A stretch of DNA of 64,000 nt from Truepera radiovictrix DSM 17093 (GTDB lineage: Bacteria > Deinococcota > Deinococci > Deinococcales > Trueperaceae): the NCBI RefSeq assembly GCF_000092425.1, contig NC_014221.1:625001-689000 (forward strand), written 5' to 3'. The notes under the pieces are model-generated. The model saw only the letters and a list, made by a program, of their open reading frames with translations, searched no databases and had not been told where the DNA came from. Position 1 is the stretch's first letter. Each line of letters begins with the position of its first letter. A program made the translations under genes and the position numbers. Below, piece after piece: positions 27,934 to 50,002 of the stretch.

Positions 27934-28562
27934 TACCCCTGGTCTCCGGGCAAGGGGGCGGGGCTAAAGCGTTTGACGCTGCGCGGTTCGATCACCCGGT
28001 CGATGAGGCCGTACGCTTTGGCCTGTTCGGGCGACATGAAAAAGTCGCGCTCCATGTCGCGCAAGATCTTCTCACGCTCCTGGCCGGTGTGGCGCTCGTA
28101 CAACCCCAAGATGGTGTCGCGCACGAACATAAACTCGCGCGCCTGCACCTCGAGGTCGGGCAGGCTGCTGCGCGGAAAGCCCGCCGAGCCCTGGTGGATC
28201 ATCACGCGGCTGTTGGGGAGCGCCGCGCGTTTGCCCTCAGCGCCCGCCATGAGGATAATCGAACCCATCGACATGGCGATGCCGACGCAGGTCGTGGCGA
28301 CGGGGGCGGAGATAAACTGCATGGTGTCGTAGATCGCGAGCCCCGCATAGACCTCGCCGCCGGGGCAGTTGATAAACAGGTTGATCTCCTGCTCGGAAGA
28401 CTGCGAGTCGAGGAGCAGCAGCTGCGCCACGACGACGTTGGCGACCTCCGAGTCGATGGGGGTACCCAGAAAGATGATGCGCTCTTTTAGCAGGCGGCTG
28501 TAGACGTCGTACATCCGTTCGCCGCGTCCGGTCTGCTCGATGACGTAGGGGACTAGGGGCAT
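27933..28562 (-). CDS. clpP: ClpP, proteolytic subunit
   Basis: This 209-residue serine peptidase has Ser98 in [10 protein letters not shown] and His123 in NSRVMIHQ; the third residue Asp is in the region before [15 protein letters not shown]. The ATG at 28562 has GAGGAG upstream and gives the normal length; the longer open frame overlaps tig. It lies 94 bases after tig and abuts clpX. Confidence 0.97.
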
Positions 28563-28656
28563 GAGCAAGCTCCTCGGGTCGAAGGGCCCGCACCCGCTGC
28601 CGGACACTGAGGCGACGGGTGCGGGGTGAGGTGTGTCGGTGCGCGCCTCGCTAGGG

Positions 28657-30096
28657 TTACTGGACGCTCTCGGAGGACGCGTCCTCGGCGGCGCCGCTCG
28701 AGGTGACCGAGACGGCCGTCTCGGGTGCCGTCTCGGCGTCCGCGTCGGCCCCCAAGAGTTCGCGCAGGCTCTCGCGGACGGCTTTGTCGCGGGTGAGCAA
28801 GAAGCGGTAGTTGGCGAGCCCCTGTTCGCCGAGCTCCTGGCGGAGTTTGGCGGGGGTGCTCCCCTGCTGCTGCGCCATAAAGGCCAGAGCCGCCTCGAAC
28901 TCCGCGTCCGAGAGCCGCGTACCGCGCGTTTCGAGGAGCTTCTCCAAGACCAGGTCGCGTTTGACGGCGTTCTCGGCGGCCTCTTCGAGCTCCGCTTCGA
29001 ACTCGGCGCGTTTCTCTTCCTGGTCGAGCTTTTCCAGGTACGCCTGCATGCTGAGGCCGCGCCCCTCGAGGTCGCGCGCGAGGTTCTGCAAGAGCACGGC
29101 CTTGCGGCGCTCTTTGAGGCTCTGTGGGACGTGCGGGTTGCTCTCCAGGGTGAGCTTCTCGGTGAACTCCTCCCGCTGCGCCGAGAACGCTTCCTGCTCG
29201 AGCTGCGCCGCCAAGGACTCGCGGACGCGCGCTTCGACCTCCGCCCAGGTCGCAAAGCCGAGCGTCTGGGCGAACTCGTCGCCCCTTTCGGGGAGCTCTT
29301 TGGCCTTGATGTCTTTGATCACGACGCGCAGCGTCGGGGGCGTAGCGGCGCCCTCGTTGCTGCCCGCGCCAGTGTTCGCGTCGGTCTCCGCGTCGACTGC
29401 GGCGGGCTCTTCGGACGTGTCAGCGGCGCGCGCCGCCTCTAGCTCCGCGTCCTCGCCGGCTTCGTTCTCGTCGGGTTGGTCGAGCGTCACCTCGACCTCG
29501 TCGCCGATGGCTTTGCCGTAAAGCTGCTCGGCGAACGCCGGTGAGACGGCGTCGAGGTCGACCGGGAGCGTCGAACCCTCCTCACCGCCCGCGAGCTCCA
29601 GGACGAGGTGATCGCCCGCCTCGGCGGGGCGCTCGACCGGGATCAACGTGGCGTGCTGGCGCTGCAGGTTCTCGATAGCCTCTTGCACCATCTCCTCGGT
29701 CAGGGGGGGCTTTTCCGTGTCGATGACGATTTCGGAGAGCTCGGGCAGGGTGACTTCGGGGTAGAGCTCGACGTCGACCTCGAAGCTGTAGGCCTCCCCC
29801 TCGACCGGTTCGTGAGCGTGTACGCGCTGCGCGATGGGGGTCAGCGAAAGCTCCCGCACGGCTTGGGGGAGGTGCAGGCGGACGAGCGCGTCGCGCACCT
29901 CTTGGGCGACCGCGTCTTTGCCGACGCGCGCCTCGATGACGCCGCGCGGCGCTTTGCCGGGACGAAAACCGGGGACGCGCACCTGCCGCGCGAGCTCGCG
30001 CAACACGCGCTCGTAGGTGTCGGTTACCGCCTCGGCGGGGACTGAAACCTTGAACTTCGCGCGGTGAGCGTCTTTTTCCAACATCTGCGTCTGCAT
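28657..30096 (-). CDS. tig: Trigger factor
   Basis: This 479-residue ribosome-bound chaperone begins with the ribosome-binding domain (signature GFRPGKAPRGVIEARVGKD near residue 43; E. coli has GFRKGKVP). The middle FKBP-like domain (about 155-280) carries a long acidic low-complexity insertion near residues 209-250 (GEDAELEAARAADTSEEPAA and on), where most proteins have a short loop. A helical C-terminal domain follows. It is about 45 residues longer than usual. ATG 30096 has GAGGAG upstream. Confidence 0.95.
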   Translation of the reverse strand: MQTQMLEKDAHRAKFKVSVPAEAVTDTYERVLRELARQVRVPGFRPGKAPRGVIEARVGKDAVAQEVRDALVRLHLPQAVRELSLTPIAQRVHAHEPVEGEAYSFEVDVELYPEVTLPELSEIVIDTEKPPLTEEMVQEAIENLQRQHATLIPVERPAEAGDHLVLELAGGEEGSTLPVDLDAVSPAFAEQLYGKAIGDEVEVTLDQPDENEAGEDAELEAARAADTSEEPAAVDAETDANTGAGSNEGAATPPTLRVVIKDIKAKELPERGDEFAQTLGFATWAEVEARVRESLAAQLEQEAFSAQREEFTEKLTLESNPHVPQSLKERRKAVLLQNLARDLEGRGLSMQAYLEKLDQEEKRAEFEAELEEAAENAVKRDLVLEKLLETRGTRLSDAEFEAALAFMAQQQGSTPAKLRQELGEQGLANYRFLLTRDKAVRESLRELLGADADAETAPETAVSVTSSGAAEDASSESVQ

Positions 30097-30249
30097 AGGT
30101 ACTCCTCGAAAGTAGCCTGGGGGGCCTGGTCGTAGCTGGGCCGCGACGCCTAGCAGCGGCCGCCAAACGGTCTAGTCTAACAAGCGGCGCGCACGTGTGA
30201 GGGTCGGCCGGGGCGCGTTTGGGCGTGCGCGGCAGAGCGGGGACGCTAC

Positions 30250-30275
30250 AAAAAAGGGCAAGCGTTAGCTTGCCC
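30250..30275 (-). terminator. Terminator after tRNA-Leu
   Basis: On the minus strand GGGCAAGC-TAAC-GCTTGCCC is followed by six T. It starts 4 bases after the encoded CCA. Confidence 0.9.
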
Positions 30276-30278
30276 GAG

Positions 30279-30363
30279 TGGTGCGAGGAATGGGACTTGA
30301 ACCCACACACCTTGCGGTACTAGATCCTAAGTCTAGCGCGTCTACCAATTCCGCCATCCTCGC
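30279..30363 (-). tRNA. tRNA-Leu(UAG)
   Basis: The minus strand folds as a tRNA with acceptor GCGAGGA/TCCTCGC, D-arm containing GGTAGAC, anticodon loop CTTAGGA (anticodon TAG at 30329-30327), a long variable arm as expected for Leu, GTTCAAGTC T-loop and an encoded CCA end. Confidence 0.95.
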
Positions 30364-30471
30364 CTGCAGCAGATGCCGTGTCGCAAGAACGAAGGTATCA
30401 CCTTCGCGTAGAAGATGATACCCCTTTAGCCTCGCGGGTACCACGGGTCGTGGGTGGTACCTGTACACCGT

Positions 30472-30549
30472 TGGGGTGGATGATGGGATTTGAACCCACG
30501 GCCCCCGGAACCACAATCCGGTGCTCTAACCGGCTGAGCTACATCCACC
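30472..30549 (-). tRNA. tRNA-His(GUG)
   Basis: The minus strand has acceptor stem GTGGATG/CATCCAC with an encoded G(-1) opposite C73, the identity pair of tRNA-His. The anticodon loop is TTGTGGT (GTG at 30514-30512), the T-loop is GTTCAAATC and CCA is encoded. It lies 108 bases before tRNA-Leu on the same strand. Confidence 0.95.
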
Positions 30550-30619
30550 GTGTAGGGTCGGCGACCCGCACCTAGGCGCAGCGGCGCGACCACCTAAGCC
30601 CTAACGCTTAGGGAAGTCT

Positions 30620-30648
30620 ACGCTAGCATCTTCCGCGCGCTTTTGCAA
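30620..30648 (-). promoter_or_regulatory. Promoter of the tRNA pair
   Basis: Minus-strand TTGCAA (30648-30643) and TAGCGT (30625-30620) are 17 bases apart, about 70 bases before tRNA-His. Confidence 0.5.
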
Positions 30649-30726
30649 TCGCTGCGGCGACCTGGCGCTGCCGCCCCGCGAGGACGCGCACGCGCTTGGC
30701 GCCACGGCGGGGTCGCGCCGTGGCCG

Positions 30727-31659
30727 CTAGTGGGCCGCGGAGATCACGCCGCGCAGCTCGGGTGCCCGCAGGAGCCGCAAGAGGGCGGCGTCCTTTTGCT
30801 TGGCCTCGAGCATGAGGTCAAAAGGGGCGTCGCCGCCAAACTGCGCGAGCGCGTCCGTGACCTGGAGAAAATCGACCGGCTCGACGAAGTCGGCGTGCGC
30901 GGTGGAGAGGTCGCGGGGTGATGAGAGGTGGAACTTGGGGACCTTGGCCGCTAGGCTCGAGGCGTCCCAGGTCGCCACCGCGCGCGCTAACAGCGGCACC
31001 AGCTCCGCTTCCCAGCTTTCTGAGACCGGGTTGAGCTTGTGGTGCAAAAAGTCGAAGACCATCGGCAGCTGGAGCGCTTCGCAGAGCTCTAAAACGTCGC
31101 CGGCGTGAAAGGTGCGGTCGTCGTTCTCCAGAATGAGCCGCGAGCGCGCCTCCGGGGAGAGCAGGGCGGCGTTCTCCGCAAAGCGCCGTTTGGCCGATCC
31201 CTTGTCGCCGTAAGCCCCGCCGACGTGCAGCGTCATGGTGCCGCTGCGGGGATCGGTAGCCGCGAGAAAGGCAGCGTGGTACTCGAGCTCGCGCACCGCC
31301 GCCGCGACGACCTCCGGGCGCTGGGCGTTGAGGATGGTGTACTGGCCGGGGTGCATCGAGAGCCGAAGGTGGTGCTCTGCGACGAGCGCGCGGACCTCGG
31401 CGAGCTCGGGGGCGAACTGCACCGGCCAGTCGAGGGGGAACGCTTCGTGCGAAGCGAGCGGGATCACCGACGAGGCGACCCGAAAAAATCGGATGCCGCG
31501 CTCTACGTTCCAGAGCAGCAGCCTCCGCAGCGTGGCGAGGTTTTCGCGGATCACCGCCGACAGGCGCGGCTCTTTAAGGTTGGCGAGCCTTAAGGTGCGC
31601 CCCGTCGTCGCGCCAAGCGTGACGTTGGTGCAGGGGTAGCCCAGGTAGCGGAGCTTCAT
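30727..31659 (-). CDS. uvsE: UV damage endonuclease (UvdE/UvsE)
   Basis: This 310-residue TIM-barrel enzyme nicks DNA 5' of UV photoproducts. It opens with LRYLGYPCTNVTLG, then FFRVASSVIPLASH, the metal-ligand region LSMHPGQYTILN, MTLHVGGAYGDK, LILENDDRTF and VFDFLHHKLNP; these supply the metal-binding His, Glu and Asp residues of the family. It is intronless and complete. AAGGGG precedes ATG 31659. The divergent upstream region carries the GTGTA-N3-TACAC palindrome shared with the RHH/murA region, so it may be under the same control. Confidence 0.93.
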   Translation of the reverse strand: MKLRYLGYPCTNVTLGATTGRTLRLANLKEPRLSAVIRENLATLRRLLLWNVERGIRFFRVASSVIPLASHEAFPLDWPVQFAPELAEVRALVAEHHLRLSMHPGQYTILNAQRPEVVAAAVRELEYHAAFLAATDPRSGTMTLHVGGAYGDKGSAKRRFAENAALLSPEARSRLILENDDRTFHAGDVLELCEALQLPMVFDFLHHKLNPVSESWEAELVPLLARAVATWDASSLAAKVPKFHLSSPRDLSTAHADFVEPVDFLQVTDALAQFGGDAPFDLMLEAKQKDAALLRLLRAPELRGVISAAH

Positions 31660-45841: not shown

Positions 45842-46366
45842 TTACAAGTAGGTCTCTAAATAGTGCTGAGGACGCCAGCCGTGCTCTAGCTCCAGGATGT
45901 CCCAGCAACCGTAGTAGTAGAGGGCTAGTTTGACGTGCGAGTCGAGTTGGAGCTTGCTGTAGAGCTCGGAAACTGTGTTCCGGACGGAGTTAATACCCAC
46001 TCCGCGCCATCTGGCGATGTCACGCATGTGATGTCCCTGAGCGATGAGATGCAGCGTCGTACGTTCGGCCGCCGTCAGCGATGTCTTTAACGTTGGGTAC
46101 AACCGGGTTCCGCGCCGTACGGCGTCAAACGCGTCGATGACGTCATCAAGGACGAGGTTGCTCACCACCGCTGCGGGGCGCTGCTCAACCAGGAAGAGGC
46201 AGTACTCCGGACAGGGATTGTCGGTCACGACGATGGTTGAAGCGTCGAGGGCGGCTGCCTGCCTAACTGCCCACCCTATGGGAGCGTCGCATAAGAGCTT
46301 CCAGGTAGCGCCCGGATGAACCTCCACGGAGGCGGCTTGGAGCGCTCTTATAGAAGTTGGGGGTAT
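45842..46366 (-). pseudogene. LuxR-type regulator, 3' part, split by IS insertion
   Basis: The minus-strand frame encodes about 175 residues. It has a receiver-like N-terminal half without a clear phosphoacceptor (ASTIVVTDNPCPEYCLFLVE), then a LuxR-type HTH (LTAAERTTLHLIAQGHHMRDIARWRGVGINSVRNTVSELYSKL). The frame has no credible start; it continues into the left end of the IS element. The missing start with an in-frame 24-codon piece lies at 48759-48830. The open frame continues as TTG-CAG- into the IS arm, so expression of a shortened protein is possible. Confidence 0.7.
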
Positions 46367-46416
46367 GGGGGGCTGCAAAACCCACGTGCTTTAGCCGTGG
46401 GATGTAGCAGCCCCCC
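46367..46416. repeat. Nested stem at the left end of the IS
   Basis: A 10-bp outer stem GGGGGGCTGC/GCAGCCCCCC (46367-46376 and 46407-46416) encloses the CCCACG/CGTGGG hairpin (46381-46401). Confidence 0.75.
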
Positions 46417-46418
46417 AA

Positions 46419-46437
46419 CTAGCTCTGCAAGAGCTAG
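46419..46437 (-). terminator. Hairpin at the end of the XRE gene
   Basis: CTAGCTCT-GCA-AGAGCTAG overlaps the XRE stop codon. On the minus strand it is followed by TT only. Confidence 0.5.
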
Positions 46438-46658
46438 CTCTTCTGGCTGTTCGCAGTCGAGGGTTTTTCTCTGACGTAGAGTTCGAGGTTTAGAGCGTCA
46501 AGAAGTTGCTGCCAGCTTTCAGGAACCTCTCCAACGTGTTCGTTTAGCATTCGGCCTAGATACTGCCGCTGCAATCCTAGACTTCGCGCCACCTCGGCTT
46601 GGCTTTTCCCAAGCTCGTCAATTCGCCTTTTAACAGCTTGTCTAATGGAGTCAGTCAT
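46434..46658 (-). CDS. XRE/Cro-type regulator carried by the IS
   Basis: This 74-residue protein is a single helix-turn-helix domain: GKSQAEVARSLGLQRQYLGRMLN spans the recognition region. The C-terminal part (VPESWQQLLDALNLELYVRE) is as in phage repressor-like or antitoxin proteins. It lies divergent to the tnpA-tnpB operon. Its ATG is 6 nt after TATACT. By position it should control the transposase operon; that is inference. An antitoxin role without a toxin is less likely. Confidence 0.8.
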   Translation of the reverse strand: MTDSIRQAVKRRIDELGKSQAEVARSLGLQRQYLGRMLNEHVGEVPESWQQLLDALNLELYVREKPSTANSQKS

Positions 46659-46670
46659 GAAGACAGTATA
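46659..46670 (-). promoter_or_regulatory. -10 box TATACT 6 nt before XRE ATG
   Basis: Minus-strand TATACT at 46670-46665 then 6 bases then ATG at 46658. Confidence 0.65.
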
Positions 46671-46677
46671 GCAGCAT

Positions 46678-46708
46678 CGTCACCACAACATGTTGACAGC
46701 CGTCACCA
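46678..46708. promoter_or_regulatory. Candidate operator region between divergent IS promoters
   Basis: CGTCACCA is repeated at 46678-46685 and 46701-46708, 23 bases apart. A perfect palindrome CAACATGTTG (46686-46695) lies between and overlaps the -35 of the tnp operon promoter. Confidence 0.55.
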
Positions 46709-46721
46709 TATTGTGTATACT
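46693..46721 (+). promoter_or_regulatory. Consensus promoter of the IS operon
   Basis: TTGACA (46693-46698) and TATACT (46716-46721) are exactly 17 bases apart, the strongest promoter-like site in the window. Confidence 0.85.
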
Positions 46722-46787
46722 TAAAGCATCTGAGCGGCATAGCCGCCAAGCACACGCCGCTCAGAAATTCCGTTAAGGGGAATCAAG

Positions 46788-46943
46788 ATGAACGATAGCA
46801 CGAACCTCCCAACCGAAGCCGAGCAAGCATCACTCCGCGACTGGCGCACCTGGCAAGCCGAGCACCACGCTCGCCGCGAAGCCAAAGGCTACAACGAGCC
46901 GGTATCCGATGAAGAAGCTCTCGACATCCTGGGGTTGCTCTAA
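46788..46943 (+). CDS. Small acidic IS-encoded protein, unknown
   Basis: I do not recognise this 51-residue protein (starts MNDSTNLPTEAEQ, ends EEALDILGLL). It is charged and helical, with a Trp-rich stretch RDWRTWQAEHHARR. AAGGGG stands before the ATG. Its TAA overlaps the next ATG as TAATG, so it is coupled to the next gene. Confidence 0.65.
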   Translation: MNDSTNLPTEAEQASLRDWRTWQAEHHARREAKGYNEPVSDEEALDILGLL

Positions 46944-47149
46944 TGAGCAGCCCCATCAAACAGGCGGCCAATACCCTGCCGGGCTGCCATTGCACCCCAC
47001 TTGAAGCCCTCCTCGAGAACTGCACTGAACAGCTTGTGCAGGAGTACAAGTTCCTCTCCGACAACGACCTTCGTATTGTCGAACTGGTGCGAGAGGCACT
47101 GAAACGGGGCGTAGAACTCGCCAACAGCCGGGTAGGGGACTTTCTCTGA
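46943..47149 (+). CDS. Small IS-encoded protein, unknown
   Basis: This 68-residue protein (MSSPIKQAANTLPG..., ending LANSRVGDFL) is not recognised. It has three cysteines (CHC and NC) near residues 15-27 and a helical C-terminus (DLRIVELVREALKRGVELA). It overlaps tnpA by one base (TGATG). Confidence 0.65.
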   Translation: MSSPIKQAANTLPGCHCTPLEALLENCTEQLVQEYKFLSDNDLRIVELVREALKRGVELANSRVGDFL

Positions 47150-47544
47150 TGCCCCGCGCCTACCAGCACAAGACCACCTCGGTATTCCTCTTGAACTACC
47201 ATCTCGTGTGGATACCGAAGTACCGCAAGAAGCTGCTGGTAGGGCGCGTCAGTGACAGGCTCAGCGAACTGCTTAACGACAAGTGCGAACGGATGGGGTG
47301 GGAGGTCATCGCCTTAGAGGTGATGCCCGACCACCTCCATCTCTTCATCGGCGCTGACCCCAGCACCTCGGTGGATTGCATCGTTCGTCATCTCAAGGGC
47401 TACACCTCCTTCAAGTTGCGGCAGGAGTTTCCACATCTGGCGCGGTTGCGTAGTCTGTGGACGCGCTCGTATTTCGTTTCGACCGCTGGTAACGTCAGCT
47501 CCCAGACGATTGAGCGGTATATTGCAGAGCAGAGGAAACGCTGA
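47149..47544 (+). CDS. tnpA: IS200-type Y1 transposase TnpA
   Basis: This 131-residue single-strand DNA transposase has the HUH metal motif at residues 62-64 (PDHLHLFI) and the catalytic Tyr124 in the C-terminal helix (TIERYIAEQ). It cuts and rejoins the ends as single strands. The stop overlaps tnpB as TGATG. Confidence 0.93.
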
Positions 47545-48743
47545 TGCTGCTTCGCAAGGTCTACCGCTTCCAGATGCGCCCCACAAAGGCGCAGGAAGAA
47601 CTGCTGTGCCAGATGGCTGGGGCGAAACGCTTCGTGTTCAATTGGGCGCTGGCTAGGCGTCGTGACTTCTATGAGGCGAACAAGGAGGGCATCAGTGCCA
47701 AGCAGCTTTCAAGCGAGCTAACCGACCTGAAAAAGCAACCTGAAACCGGGTGGCTTAAGGGCGTTGACTCGCAGCTCCTTCAACAGGCGCTCAAGGACGT
47801 TGACCGCAGCTTCAAGAACTTCTTTGAGAAACGCTCGCGCTTTCCTCGGTTCAAGTCGCGCAAGCGAGAGATGCCGAGCTTCCGCATTCCGCAACGGGTC
47901 AAGGTTGAAGATGGCAAGGTCTACGTTCCTAAAATCGGCTGGGTACGCATCCGCCAGTCTCAAGACATTGACTGCAAAACCAAGTCGGCCACCTTCAAGC
48001 GCGACGCCACCGGCAAGTGGTATGTGACGCTGACGGCCGAGTTTGAAATGCCGGACGTGCCACTACCGCCCGCCAAGCCTGAGAACGTCGTAGGCATAGA
48101 CCTCGGGCTCAAAGACTTCGCTGTCCTTTCCAGTGGTGAACGGGAAGCGCCGCCCAAGCACTACCGCGCCGCCGAGAAGAAGCTGAAACGCGCACAAAGG
48201 GCGCTCTCTCGCAAGCAGAAGGGAAGCAAGAACCGTGATAGAGCCAGACAGCAGCTAGCTCGTATCCATCAGAAAGTCAGGAACAAACGTCAAGACTTTC
48301 TCCATAAGATGACCACCTCCCTAGTGAGGGGCTATGAGGGTATCTGTATCGAAGACCTATCGCTCAAAGGCATGGCGAGAACCAAGCTAGCCAAGAGCGT
48401 GTCTGATGCGGCCCTCGGAGAGTTCCGTAGGCAACTCGAGTACAAAACGGTGTGGCATCGAAAGCACCTGGCAGTCATAGACAGGTTTTTCCCAAGTTCC
48501 AAGCTGCACATGGAGTGCGGCGCTATCAACGACGCCCTGACACTCGCTGATAGGGTTTGGACGTGTGCCTGTGGTGCGGTGATAGACCGCGACCTGAATG
48601 CGGCGCACAACATCAAAGTAGAAGGACTTAAACAGCTTGTCGCGGCGGGGCACGCCGAGACGCTAAACGCTTGTGGAGCGCAGGTAAGACCGACCCTAAT
48701 CAGTCGGCACAGCGCTGTGAAGCAAGAATCCCACGTGCTTTAG
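47544..48743 (+). CDS. tnpB: TnpB RNA-guided nuclease (IS605 family)
   Basis: This 399-residue protein has the complete RuvC triad: D186 in GIDLGLK, E270 in CIEDLSLKG and D350 (D348 alternative) in [12 protein letters not shown] zinc-ribbon-like region lies at 319-344 (SSKLHMECG ... WTCACG); one of the four usual cysteines is replaced by Leu-His. TnpB proteins of this family are guide-RNA directed DNA nucleases that protect or home the element; activity here is inference. Its last codons run into the right-end hairpin, as expected for the omega RNA source. It is coupled with tnpA by one shared base. Confidence 0.93.
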
Positions 48744-48774
48744 CCGTGGGAGTGTCAAGAGTTCTTGCTCGAGC
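48600..48774 (+). ncRNA. Putative omega RNA overlapping tnpB 3' end and right end
   Basis: In TnpB elements the guide RNA comes from the 3' end of tnpB, the right-end hairpin and about 16 bases of flank. That stretch here ends in the palindrome and GTCAA, with flank 48759-48774 as the guide. Boundaries are approximate and rest on family knowledge, not on measured transcripts. Confidence 0.45.
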
Positions 48775-48830
48775 GAGGCTACGCCACAAGAGAGGCGTAG
48801 GCTCCTGCTTTGTGACCCTACCTGCAGCAC
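48759..48830 (-). pseudogene. LuxR-type regulator, 5' part (24 codons)
   Basis: The minus strand from GTG 48830 encodes a short receiver-like start (SLRLSCGVASLEQEL) that ends exactly at the IS right end. The frame phase matches the 3' part at 45842-46366. A consensus promoter stands upstream (48861-48889). Confidence 0.55.
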
Positions 48831-48860
48831 AGGGGCCCCCGTGGACGCGGACTAGGTTGC

Positions 48861-48889
48861 AGTATGACCAAAAAGTATGGGGGTGTCAA
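48861..48889 (-). promoter_or_regulatory. Promoter of the split LuxR-type gene
   Basis: Minus-strand TTGACA (48889-48884) and CATACT (48866-48861) with 17 bases between. Confidence 0.65.
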
Positions 48890-48925
48890 GGCGGCACGCT
48901 CGGTCCCTTGGCTTTGCGTTGGCTG

Positions 48926-50002
48926 TCAAACCACCCCATAATGCGCAAAAAAGCGCCGCACCTTGGGGTCTTTGAGGTAGGGGTGGAACATCTGCACGGC
49001 GGGGGAGGGGTTGTGGTTGGCCTCGAGGATCCACCATGTACCCCCGGAGATGAGCACGTCCCAACCGACGTAGCGCAAAAAGGGGAAGCGCGCGGCGACC
49101 TCGAGCAGCTGGTCTTGGAGCGTCCCCCAACCGGGGACCTTGACCCCCTTGATGGGGGCGGCCGTGTCGGGGTGGTGCGAGCACCAGAAGAGCTCGCCGC
49201 CCGTCTCGCGTGGGAACTTGACCGCTAACCCTAGCTCGCCCGTCTGGAGGTCGATAGGGGCCATTAGCCCGCCGCGCGAGACGTTGTCGGTGGGCCGCGT
49301 CGTGTTGGAGCCGAAGCGGTGTACGGCGACGGCGACGAAGGGCCGATGGCCGTCGTCCGGGTCCTGCATGGTGGTGACGCGGATGCTGTTGGCCGCTTCC
49401 GGAAAGATCGCCGCCGCGTAGCCCGTCTGCACCACGCGCTCCGTGACCAGGGTGCGGTCGCGCCCTGCGACGTGCGTAGCGACCGTCTCGGGGCTCACGG
49501 GTTGCCCGTTGAGGTAGGGGGTGCCGTCCGCTACCGTCAGGCTGGCGATCCCCTGACCCTGCCAGCCGTCGGTCGGTTTGAGGACGACGCCGGTGCCTCG
49601 GCGGCAAAACTCGAGCAGCGCACCTACGCTGCGCAGCTCAGCGGGGCCGCCCGGTAGGGGGAAGAGCTGCCCGCGTTCGATGAGCGCGACGACCCGGGGC
49701 ATCTCGAAGGTGCCCTCAAAGGCGTCGCCGAACACCCGCCAGAAGAGCAGCTTGTCGTGCAGGATGCGGCGGCAGAAGGGGCCGTTGATCAGCGTCGCCT
49801 CGCGAAACGCGCTGTCGGGGAGGTAGTCGTCGGGGTCGTTGTGATCAAAACTGTAAAGGGCGTACGAGGCGCTCCGGAAGCCGCGCCGGAACATCTCGAA
49901 ACGCTTGGAGAGCGGCATGCGCAGCGGCGCATCTTTCTGGTAGCTCACCGCCCGCCGCAGCTCTTTAAGCGGCCCGCGCCAGTGCCGTTTCGTCCGCGCC
50001 AT
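48926..50002 (-). CDS. ATP-grasp protein (sugar-transfer associated type)
   Basis: This 358-residue protein resembles the ATPgrasp_ST/alpha-L-glutamate ligase-like group. Landmarks are VVLKPTDGWQGQGI (ATP-binding Lys and glycine loop) near residue 140, RVTTM and VGWDVLISGGTWWILEANHNPSPAVQMFHPY at the C-terminus, where D and N/E residues bind magnesium. Such enzymes join carboxylates and amines, often in cell-surface biosynthesis; substrates unknown. ATG 50002 lies 6 nt after TAGACT. Confidence 0.82.
   Translation of the reverse strand: MARTKRHWRGPLKELRRAVSYQKDAPLRMPLSKRFEMFRRGFRSASYALYSFDHNDPDDYLPDSAFREATLINGPFCRRILHDKLLFWRVFGDAFEGTFEMPRVVALIERGQLFPLPGGPAELRSVGALLEFCRRGTGVVLKPTDGWQGQGIASLTVADGTPYLNGQPVSPETVATHVAGRDRTLVTERVVQTGYAAAIFPEAANSIRVTTMQDPDDGHRPFVAVAVHRFGSNTTRPTDNVSRGGLMAPIDLQTGELGLAVKFPRETGGELFWCSHHPDTAAPIKGVKVPGWGTLQDQLLEVAARFPFLRYVGWDVLISGGTWWILEANHNPSPAVQMFHPYLKDPKVRRFFAHYGVV

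What the first reader, a model, noticed from the sequence alone, without database searches (positions are those of the whole stretch)
46367..48758. IS605-type element with a divergent XRE regulator and a four-gene coupled tnp operon
The tnpA-tnpB pair is preceded by two small unknown ORFs, and all four are linked by TAATG/TGATG one-base overlaps behind a near-perfect TTGACA-17-TATACT promoter. A divergent XRE-type protein lies on the other side, with an 8-base direct repeat (CGTCACCA) and a CAACATGTTG palindrome between the promoters. Ordinary IS200/IS605 elements have only tnpA and/or tnpB. This looks like a self-regulated TnpB element with possible accessory factors.
Basis: partly seen in the sequence, partly recalled or inferred. 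Interest (0 to 1): 0.72.

Follow-up and report, generated by a model that had tools for sequence, protein, structure and literature searches.

The report
Jumping gene with its own repressor
A small mobile DNA element that carries an RNA-guided nuclease gene also carries what looks like its own phage-type repressor and two extra small genes, which suggests that it switches its own movement on and off; this is unusual for such minimal elements but has not been tested.

Summary
Window 46352-48758 is one complete 2407-bp IS200/IS605-family element with hairpin ends, tnpA and tnpB, a divergent 74-aa XRE gene and two small ORFs; the four rightward genes overlap by one base each. Three identical copies sit in this genome and one in a Mu-like phage contig, all after TTAT; cutting 2407 bp out of one copy leaves an open frame of 402 codons. 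So the XRE gene and small ORFs move with the element.

The closest relatives examined have plain LE-tnpA-tnpB-RE. One apparently independent parallel was found: a Deinococcus sp. QL22 plasmid element with a related XRE (45%), two unrelated small ORFs ahead of a tnpA, and a 46-bp palindrome forming two divergent promoters. [quoted passage not shown] Binding and repression are inferred, not shown; the small ORFs look coding but their function is unknown. New variant of a known kind.

The parts
46348..46351 (.). TTAT target motif left of the element (flank, not part of it); probable TAM for TnpB
   Evidence: Same four bases at 4 of 4 insertion sites
46352..46433 (+). Left end (LE), with hairpin 46381-46401 inside a longer stem, followed by a second hairpin that reaches into the 3' end of the XRE gene
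   Evidence: Predicted fold -54.9 kcal/mol over the stretch; similar layout in phylum and Deinococcus relatives, compared by eye
46434..46658 (-). XRE-family helix-turn-helix gene, 74 aa, divergent; candidate repressor
   Evidence: Pfam HTH_3 24.6 bits, cut-off 23; PHROG transcriptional repressor 1.3e-5; PDB profile hits include HipB and 434 repressor
46665..46673 (-). Extended -10 (TGC-TATACT) of the XRE promoter, six bases before the ATG: probably a leaderless transcript
   Evidence: Sequence; promoter assignment inferred
46678..46685 (+). CGTCACCA direct repeat, copy 1
46686..46695 (.). CAACATGTTG palindrome overlapping the -35 box of the tnp promoter; candidate XRE operator
   Evidence: ACATGT core shared with the QL22 palindrome
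46693..46721 (+). Promoter of the four-gene operon: TTGACA, 17 bp, TATACT
   Evidence: only match of its kind in the window
46701..46708 (+). CGTCACCA direct repeat, copy 2
46788..46943 (+). orf1, 51 aa, no known family; predicted helical
   Evidence: no Pfam family up to E 1, one PHROG hit at 0.29; AF2 single-sequence pLDDT 81.9
46943..47149 (+). orf2, 68 aa, no known family; predicted helical, low confidence
   Evidence: no Pfam family up to E 1, best PHROG hit 0.032; AF2 pLDDT 66.6
47149..47544 (+). tnpA, Y1 (HUH) transposase, 131 aa
   Evidence: Pfam Y1_Tnp 2.3e-39; H62, H64, Y124 invariant in A3; IS608 TnpA 2a6m 2.3e-26
47544..48743 (+). tnpB, RNA-guided nuclease family, 399 aa
   Evidence: NCBIfam guided_TnpB 8.4e-107; TnpB 8h1j 1.1e-90; D186, E270, D350 invariant in A2
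48720..48758 (+). Right end (RE): GAAT, hairpin 48730-48751, ending GTGTCAA
   Evidence: near-identical RE in relatives L021, L023, L024, L025, L048, L049

Best explanation
This is a mobile IS200/IS605-family element that has acquired a phage-type control module between its left end and tnpA. Shown by sequence: the XRE gene, two small ORFs and a divergent control region lie inside the element and travel with it. Inferred: a dimer of the XRE protein binds the ACATGT-core palindrome 46686-46695, which overlaps the -35 box of the tnp promoter and lies where the -35 box of the XRE promoter would be, and so represses both. The tnp promoter is close to consensus; the XRE promoter looks weaker (extended -10, no good -35). 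In a cell that already holds a copy, XRE keeps tnpA and tnpB low. In a cell without XRE, reached for example on a phage, the tnp operon fires first and the element jumps before repression sets in (zygotic induction). orf1 and orf2 are translated ahead of tnpA by coupling; they may be helper proteins, leftovers of a captured phage operon, or both.
For: Identical copies at four sites, each after TTAT, and an open frame of 402 codons when 2407 bp are cut out of copy 3. Intact TnpA and TnpB active-site residues. Some relatives of the XRE sit in phage-like or integrative settings: L055 and L058 beside an integrase-like ORF (judged by eye), D. aetherius beside a tape measure gene. Parallel in Deinococcus sp. 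QL22: XRE 44.6% identical, two small ORFs coupled to tnpA, a 46-bp perfect palindrome holding two divergent TTGACA-17-TATACT promoters, all between one left and one right end. The closest other plasmid hit of the QL22 XRE (D. aquaticus, 57.6%) has a 38-bp palindrome with TTGACG in the corresponding place. One copy sits in a contig with Mu-type phage genes. Precedent: type I-F3 CASTs are controlled by Xre proteins and show zygotic induction (PMC11406308, passage read).
Against: No binding or expression data. The window palindrome is short (10 bp; a 13-bp one with a 3-base gap lies farther upstream), and of 12 XRE upstream regions compared only QL22 and D. aquaticus have long perfect palindromes at the promoter; 7 of the 9 others gave no perfect palindrome with arms of 5 bp or more, and those found for L056 and L058 do not resemble this operator. 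Only 1 of the 4 plasmid records was seen to have the XRE beside tnpA. The small ORFs of the two elements are not homologous. The QL22 case was found by searching with the XRE, so it is not a frequency estimate, and only one copy of it is known to me. ISDra2 excision was reported to be limited by supply of the DNA substrate (PMC2806898, passages read), so transcriptional control might matter less than assumed.
Confidence: 0.67

Rival explanations
1. The XRE gene, promoter and small ORFs are passengers: a phage early region was captured by chance and its strong promoter now simply drives tnpA and tnpB; the XRE protein no longer controls anything, or controls only itself.
For: Some XRE relatives are in phage-like or integrase settings; small ORFs are unrelated between the two elements; the XRE layout is rare, 2 of 115 distinct tnpA starts examined, one of them the seed and one found through the XRE.
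Against: All ORFs are intact in 4 copies; two elements of different TnpA and TnpB type carry related XREs in analogous layouts with a palindrome on the promoter, which chance capture would not favour.
Confidence: 0.2
2. The XRE gene and small ORFs form a toxin-antitoxin-like addiction module that stabilises the element, with the XRE as the antitoxin and regulator.
For: XRE profile hits in the PDB include antitoxins HipB and HigA; two small proteins lie on the other side of the promoter; NCBIfam hits to antidote families are far below cut-off; orf2 has a non-significant hit to antitoxin RelB (E 0.81).
Against: No toxin family is recognised in orf1 or orf2; the candidate toxins are divergent from, not co-transcribed with, the XRE.
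Confidence: 0.06
3. orf1 and orf2 are leader ORFs whose translation sets tnpA and tnpB expression through coupling; their products have no function. (Compatible with XRE control of the operon.)
For: One-base overlaps at all three junctions, with purine-rich Shine-Dalgarno-like sequences before the starts by eye; no homologues outside the element found.
Against: GC3 and GC2 like the tnp genes and predicted helices suggest real proteins; two ORFs are more than a leader needs.
Confidence: 0.2

Closest known systems
IS200/IS605 family, IS605-type elements such as ISDra2 and IS608
   Same: Y1 HUH TnpA, TnpB, subterminal hairpins, insertion 3' of a short motif, overlapping tnpA and tnpB
   Different: Members are described as carrying tnpA and tnpB, or one of them alone (PMC8612924, passages); here an XRE gene, two small ORFs and a divergent control region sit between LE and tnpA
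IS605 elements in other genomes of the phylum (L021, L022, L023, L024, L025, L048, L049; genomes unnamed, Thermaceae is my inference) and on Deinococcus plasmids (QL22 unnamed4, D. wulumuqiensis pDrdI)
   Same: TnpA 57-62% identical; in the seven unnamed loci TnpB 66-78% over the aligned stretches and a very similar RE in six of seven
   Different: LE runs directly into tnpA; no XRE, orf1 or orf2 found
Element on Deinococcus sp. QL22 plasmid unnamed8 (NZ_CP097156.1, about 28272-31329)
   Same: Related XRE (44.6%), two small ORFs coupled to tnpA, divergent promoters over an ACATGT-core palindrome, all inside one LE and RE
   Different: tnpA is of another type (32% identical) and points the other way; XRE is followed by an HNH gene and tnpB; the small ORFs are unrelated
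Type I-F3 CRISPR-associated Tn7-like transposons with Xre regulators RtaC and RtbC
   Same: Mobile element controlled by an independently recruited Xre protein, zygotic induction (PMC11406308, passage)
   Different: Unrelated transposition machinery; only the mode of control is compared
Phage CI/Cro-type repressor regions
   Same: Small HTH repressor gene facing an early operon across neighbouring promoters (general knowledge, recalled)
   Different: Here it would control a transposase operon of an insertion sequence

Membership tests
IS200/IS605 | Y1 transposase with HUH motif and catalytic tyrosine | tested here: met
   Pfam Y1_Tnp 134.7 bits; H62, H64, Y124 invariant among 8 aligned TnpA; their catalytic role is recalled
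IS200/IS605 | Subterminal hairpins at both ends | tested here: met
   Folds and shared ends
IS200/IS605 | Insertion 3' of a specific short sequence without target duplication | tested here: met
   TTAT before, and not after, the element at 4 of 4 sites; cutting out 2407 bp leaves a 402-codon open frame at copy 3
IS200/IS605 | Gene content tnpA and/or tnpB only (typical, not strictly defining) | tested here: not met
   Three further genes inside the ends
TnpB RNA-guided nucleases | RuvC D/E/D residues | tested here: met
   D186, E270, D350 invariant in 7 aligned TnpB; equating them with the catalytic set of ISDra2 TnpB is recalled
TnpB RNA-guided nucleases | reRNA (omega RNA) made from the right end | tested here: inconclusive
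   No Rfam match up to E 0.1 in 46000-49000; no RNA data
XRE-family regulators | HTH_3-type DNA-binding domain | tested here: met
   24.6 bits against cut-off 23
XRE-family regulators | Binds an operator and controls transcription | not testable with these tools
   Needs binding and reporter assays
Xre-controlled transposons (I-F3 CAST mode of control) | Repression by Xre and burst on entry into a naive cell | not testable with these tools
   Analogy only; no shared machinery

The most novel reading that the evidence does not exclude
Some IS605 elements of the Deinococcota have more than once taken up a phage-like immunity switch (XRE repressor, palindromic operator on divergent promoters, early small ORFs), which gives an RNA-guided-nuclease insertion sequence copy-number control, exclusion of incoming copies and zygotic induction on phages and plasmids.
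Probability: 0.35. Interest if true: 0.72.

Novelty: new variant of a known kind. Interest (0 to 1): 0.56.

Why it matters
IS200/IS605 elements are described as among the simplest mobile elements, with tnpA and tnpB or one of them alone (PMC8612924, passages read), and TnpB is described as a functional ancestor of CRISPR-Cas nucleases (abstract starts listed). An element with its own transcriptional repressor would mean that such a minimal element can acquire a lysogeny-like switch, would give a natural means of controlling TnpB expression, and would parallel the Xre control of CRISPR-associated transposons. It also makes a clean test possible of whether transposase level or single-stranded DNA supply limits peel-and-paste transposition.

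Tried and rejected
Chance ORFs: rejected on the coding statistics and four identical copies.

XRE and small ORFs as host genes flanking a plain IS: rejected, since four copies with different flanks contain them and one excision leaves a long open frame.

L051 (a viral contig with a 75-aa ORF ending near tnpA) as a further example: rejected on reading the sequence, because a hairpin like a left end lies between the ORF and tnpA, so the IS seems inserted in a phage gene. L091 (131-aa ORF, profile E 0.0084; same locus as L013): judged by eye to be a flanking gene.

Homology between the small ORFs of the two elements: not supported; the best pair was equalled by 13 of 300 shuffles, the other five comparisons (HNH included) by 64 to 268 of 300.

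Rfam for an omega RNA: nothing. PDB search with orf2: best hit 1.4e-4 to a designed protein, with no stretch passing on its own, the rest weaker. orf2 has a weak PHROG hit (0.032) to a family that also matches TnpB; not followed.

Sample of another phylum (396 genomes, around an Actinomycetes genome) with the XRE profile: 146 of 396 hit, best 9.6e-9, most far weaker, listing capped; I take them as general HTH matches. Of the 58 loci numbered L151-L208 (best matches), tnpA was found only in the own-genome locus L181.

A genome-contig scan with TnpA gave 10 loci at 27-54% identity and none with the extra genes.

Literature: (open-access PMC library only; 76 and 83 listed no paper) listed no report, judged from titles, abstract starts and the passages read, of an XRE gene inside an IS605 element. 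Subscription papers and ISfinder itself were not available.
Full report
What is there. The window is bases 625001-689000 of a single-contig 3,260,398-bp genome. The size fits Truepera radiovictrix, which I recall and no call names. At 46352-48758 lies a 2407-bp element. From left to right it holds a left end with hairpins, a leftward 74-aa XRE gene, a control region, orf1 (51 aa), orf2 (68 aa), tnpA (131 aa), tnpB (399 aa) and a right-end hairpin ending GTGTCAA. The three junctions between the rightward genes are one-base overlaps. GC content is 56% against 67.8% for the window, which suggests foreign origin.

Boundaries and mobility. A DNA search of the own genome gave three full-length copies, at about 603.0, 671.3 and 696.5 kb, all reported as 100% identical, plus two short matches to the right end. 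A viral contig (IMGVR_UViG_3300045912_000463) holds the same stretch with no mismatch over 2411 bases; its flanks encode Mu-type portal and F-like proteins. All four sites read TTAT just before the element. Removing exactly 2407 bp from copy 3 leaves an open frame of 402 codons, stop to stop, across the join. The join at the window copy leaves a 200-codon frame that joins 31 codons to the LuxR-type ORF; the other two joins give only short frames. The XRE gene and the small ORFs are therefore part of the mobile unit.

The transposition genes. TnpA is a Y1 transposase (Pfam 2.3e-39) with the HUH histidines and the tyrosine invariant among eight aligned proteins. TnpB matches a solved TnpB (8h1j, 1.1e-90; ISDra2 by recall) over nearly its full length, and three acidic residues that I equate with the RuvC site are invariant in seven aligned proteins. 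The RE ending TCAA and the GAAT before the hairpin resemble IS608 as I recall it.

Relatives without the extra genes. In 111 phylum genomes (own included, genomes unnamed, so I cannot say how many are Deinococcus) TnpA matches were found in 27. The closest, at 57-62% identity, have a left end of similar build followed directly by tnpA, then tnpB; six of the seven looked at show an almost identical right end, the seventh lies on a short contig. Two Deinococcus plasmid elements at 61-62% TnpA identity are also plain. tblastn of the XRE, orf1 and orf2 against the 41 loci L009-L049 found them only in the own-genome copies and the viral contig; one orf1 hit at E 0.30 is chance.

Are the extra genes found elsewhere? 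orf2: 1 of 111 phylum genomes, the own one; none in 72,556 plasmid records; none in 50,697 phage records; one locus in IMG/VR, the identical element. orf1: no plasmid record, only hits of E 0.0123 or worse in the other phylum genomes, and the same single viral contig. XRE: 6 of 111 phylum genomes at E<=0.001, the other five at 30-44% identity; 4 plasmid records, all Deinococcus; no phage record; the same single viral contig.

The parallel in Deinococcus. The best plasmid hit of the XRE (44.6%) lies on a 188,830-bp QL22 plasmid with a phage tape measure gene. Leftward run two small ORFs and a tnpA, each overlapping the next by four bases; rightward run the XRE, an HNH gene and tnpB. Between them is a 46-bp perfect inverted repeat that holds two divergent TTGACA-17-TATACT promoters sharing their -35 region. 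Compared by eye, the sequence outside tnpA matches the left end of D. wulumuqiensis, D. aquaticus and D. taeanensis TnpB elements, and the sequence after tnpB matches right ends of that group. So the XRE module again seems to lie inside one element, about 28272-31329 of the record. Its TnpB is 34% and its TnpA 32% identical to the window's, and its small ORFs are not detectably related. I have only one copy of it and no empty site. One search reports four XRE places in this record; I looked only at its first 50 kb, which hold one. The other three plasmid records have no transposase annotated in the stretches fetched, one of which is cut at the record start. The nearest other plasmid relative of the QL22 XRE, in D. 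aquaticus, has no match to the two TnpA queries in the stretch fetched (transposase genes of unstated family lie about 3 kb away), but has a 38-bp perfect palindrome with TTGACG in the corresponding place.

How common. Among 115 distinct tnpA starts in the 267 loci held at that time (105 with at least 700 bp upstream; mostly best matches from this phylum, samples of two other phyla, a few plasmids, genome contigs and viral contigs), an XRE-profile hit below E 0.001 within 1.2 kb upstream occurred at 2, the window element and QL22; a third at 0.0084 I judged a flanking gene. ORFs ending within 8 bases of the tnpA start numbered 15 (loci with under 300 bp upstream left out); apart from these two elements I judged them by eye to be left-end read-through or flanking genes, L225 resembling IscB (recalled). 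The sample is not random, and QL22 was found through the XRE. TnpA matched 2665 plasmid and 101 phage records, of which I opened only two, so further cases are not excluded.

Control region. CAACATGTTG (46686-46695) overlaps the first three bases of the TTGACA of the tnp promoter. The XRE promoter seems to be an extended -10 (TGCTATACT) six bases before its start codon. QL22 has TTGACATGTCAA at the matching place, so both share an ACATGT core. Of 12 XRE upstream regions compared, only QL22 and D. aquaticus have long perfect palindromes at the promoter; 7 of the 9 others besides the window had none with arms of 5 bp or more. The operator claim thus rests on few cases. The CGTCACCA pair, 23 bp apart, flanks the palindrome and could be extra half-sites; this is inference.

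Mechanism. The simplest reading is autorepression plus operon repression by the XRE, giving low transposition in settled cells and a burst in naive ones. [quoted passage not shown] Against it, ISDra2 activity was suggested to be limited by the supply of a correct DNA substrate (PMC2806898, passages read). The roles of orf1 and orf2 are open: helpers, leaders for coupling, or captured phage ORFs.

Verdict. It is a member of the IS200/IS605 family with non-standard gene content, a new variant of a known kind. I found no report of an XRE gene inside an IS605 element in the open-access library (titles, abstract starts and passages only).

Noticed in passing
window 45842-46378 (-): A LuxR-type HTH ORF (GerE, 2.8e-5) whose listed start lies in the element's left end; with the flanks joined the frame runs on 31 codons past the join, so the insertion may have cut off its N-terminus.
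   Followed up: partly
L003 (genome 695006-700417): Copy 3 interrupts an open frame of 402 codons whose translation contains a GDSGSP motif, so perhaps a trypsin-like protease (motif recalled).
   Followed up: partly
L272 and L273 (genome about 2400.7 and 194.5 kb): Two identical 1353-bp stretches with a TnpB of 37% identity over the matched part and no tnpA found; the right end is 93% identical over 42 bp to this element's, so they might be moved in trans by its TnpA.
   Followed up: partly
window tnpB, residue 322: The first cysteine of the presumed zinc ribbon, present in all six aligned relatives, is a histidine here (HMECG); a histidine could still bind zinc.
   Followed up: no
genome 603.0, 671.3 and 696.5 kb: The three identical copies lie within 96 kb of a 3.26-Mb genome, a clustering not explained.
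   Followed up: no
L125 (Deinococcus aquaticus plasmid pDATS03): An XRE gene with a 38-bp perfect palindrome holding TTGACGCGTCAA upstream, same design as in QL22, without a TnpA match in the stretch fetched.
   Followed up: partly
genome 600741, 1012653, 1283072, 1526107, 2018798, 2638616, 2939273: Seven copies of a different Y1 transposase gene with equal scores, one about 2 kb from copy 2 of this element.
   Followed up: no
L019 5813-7039 (-): In the viral contig the element sits at the 3' end of a Mu F-like phage gene (Phage_Mu_F and PBECR2 domains); the listed stop codon of that ORF lies in the last bases of the element.
   Followed up: partly
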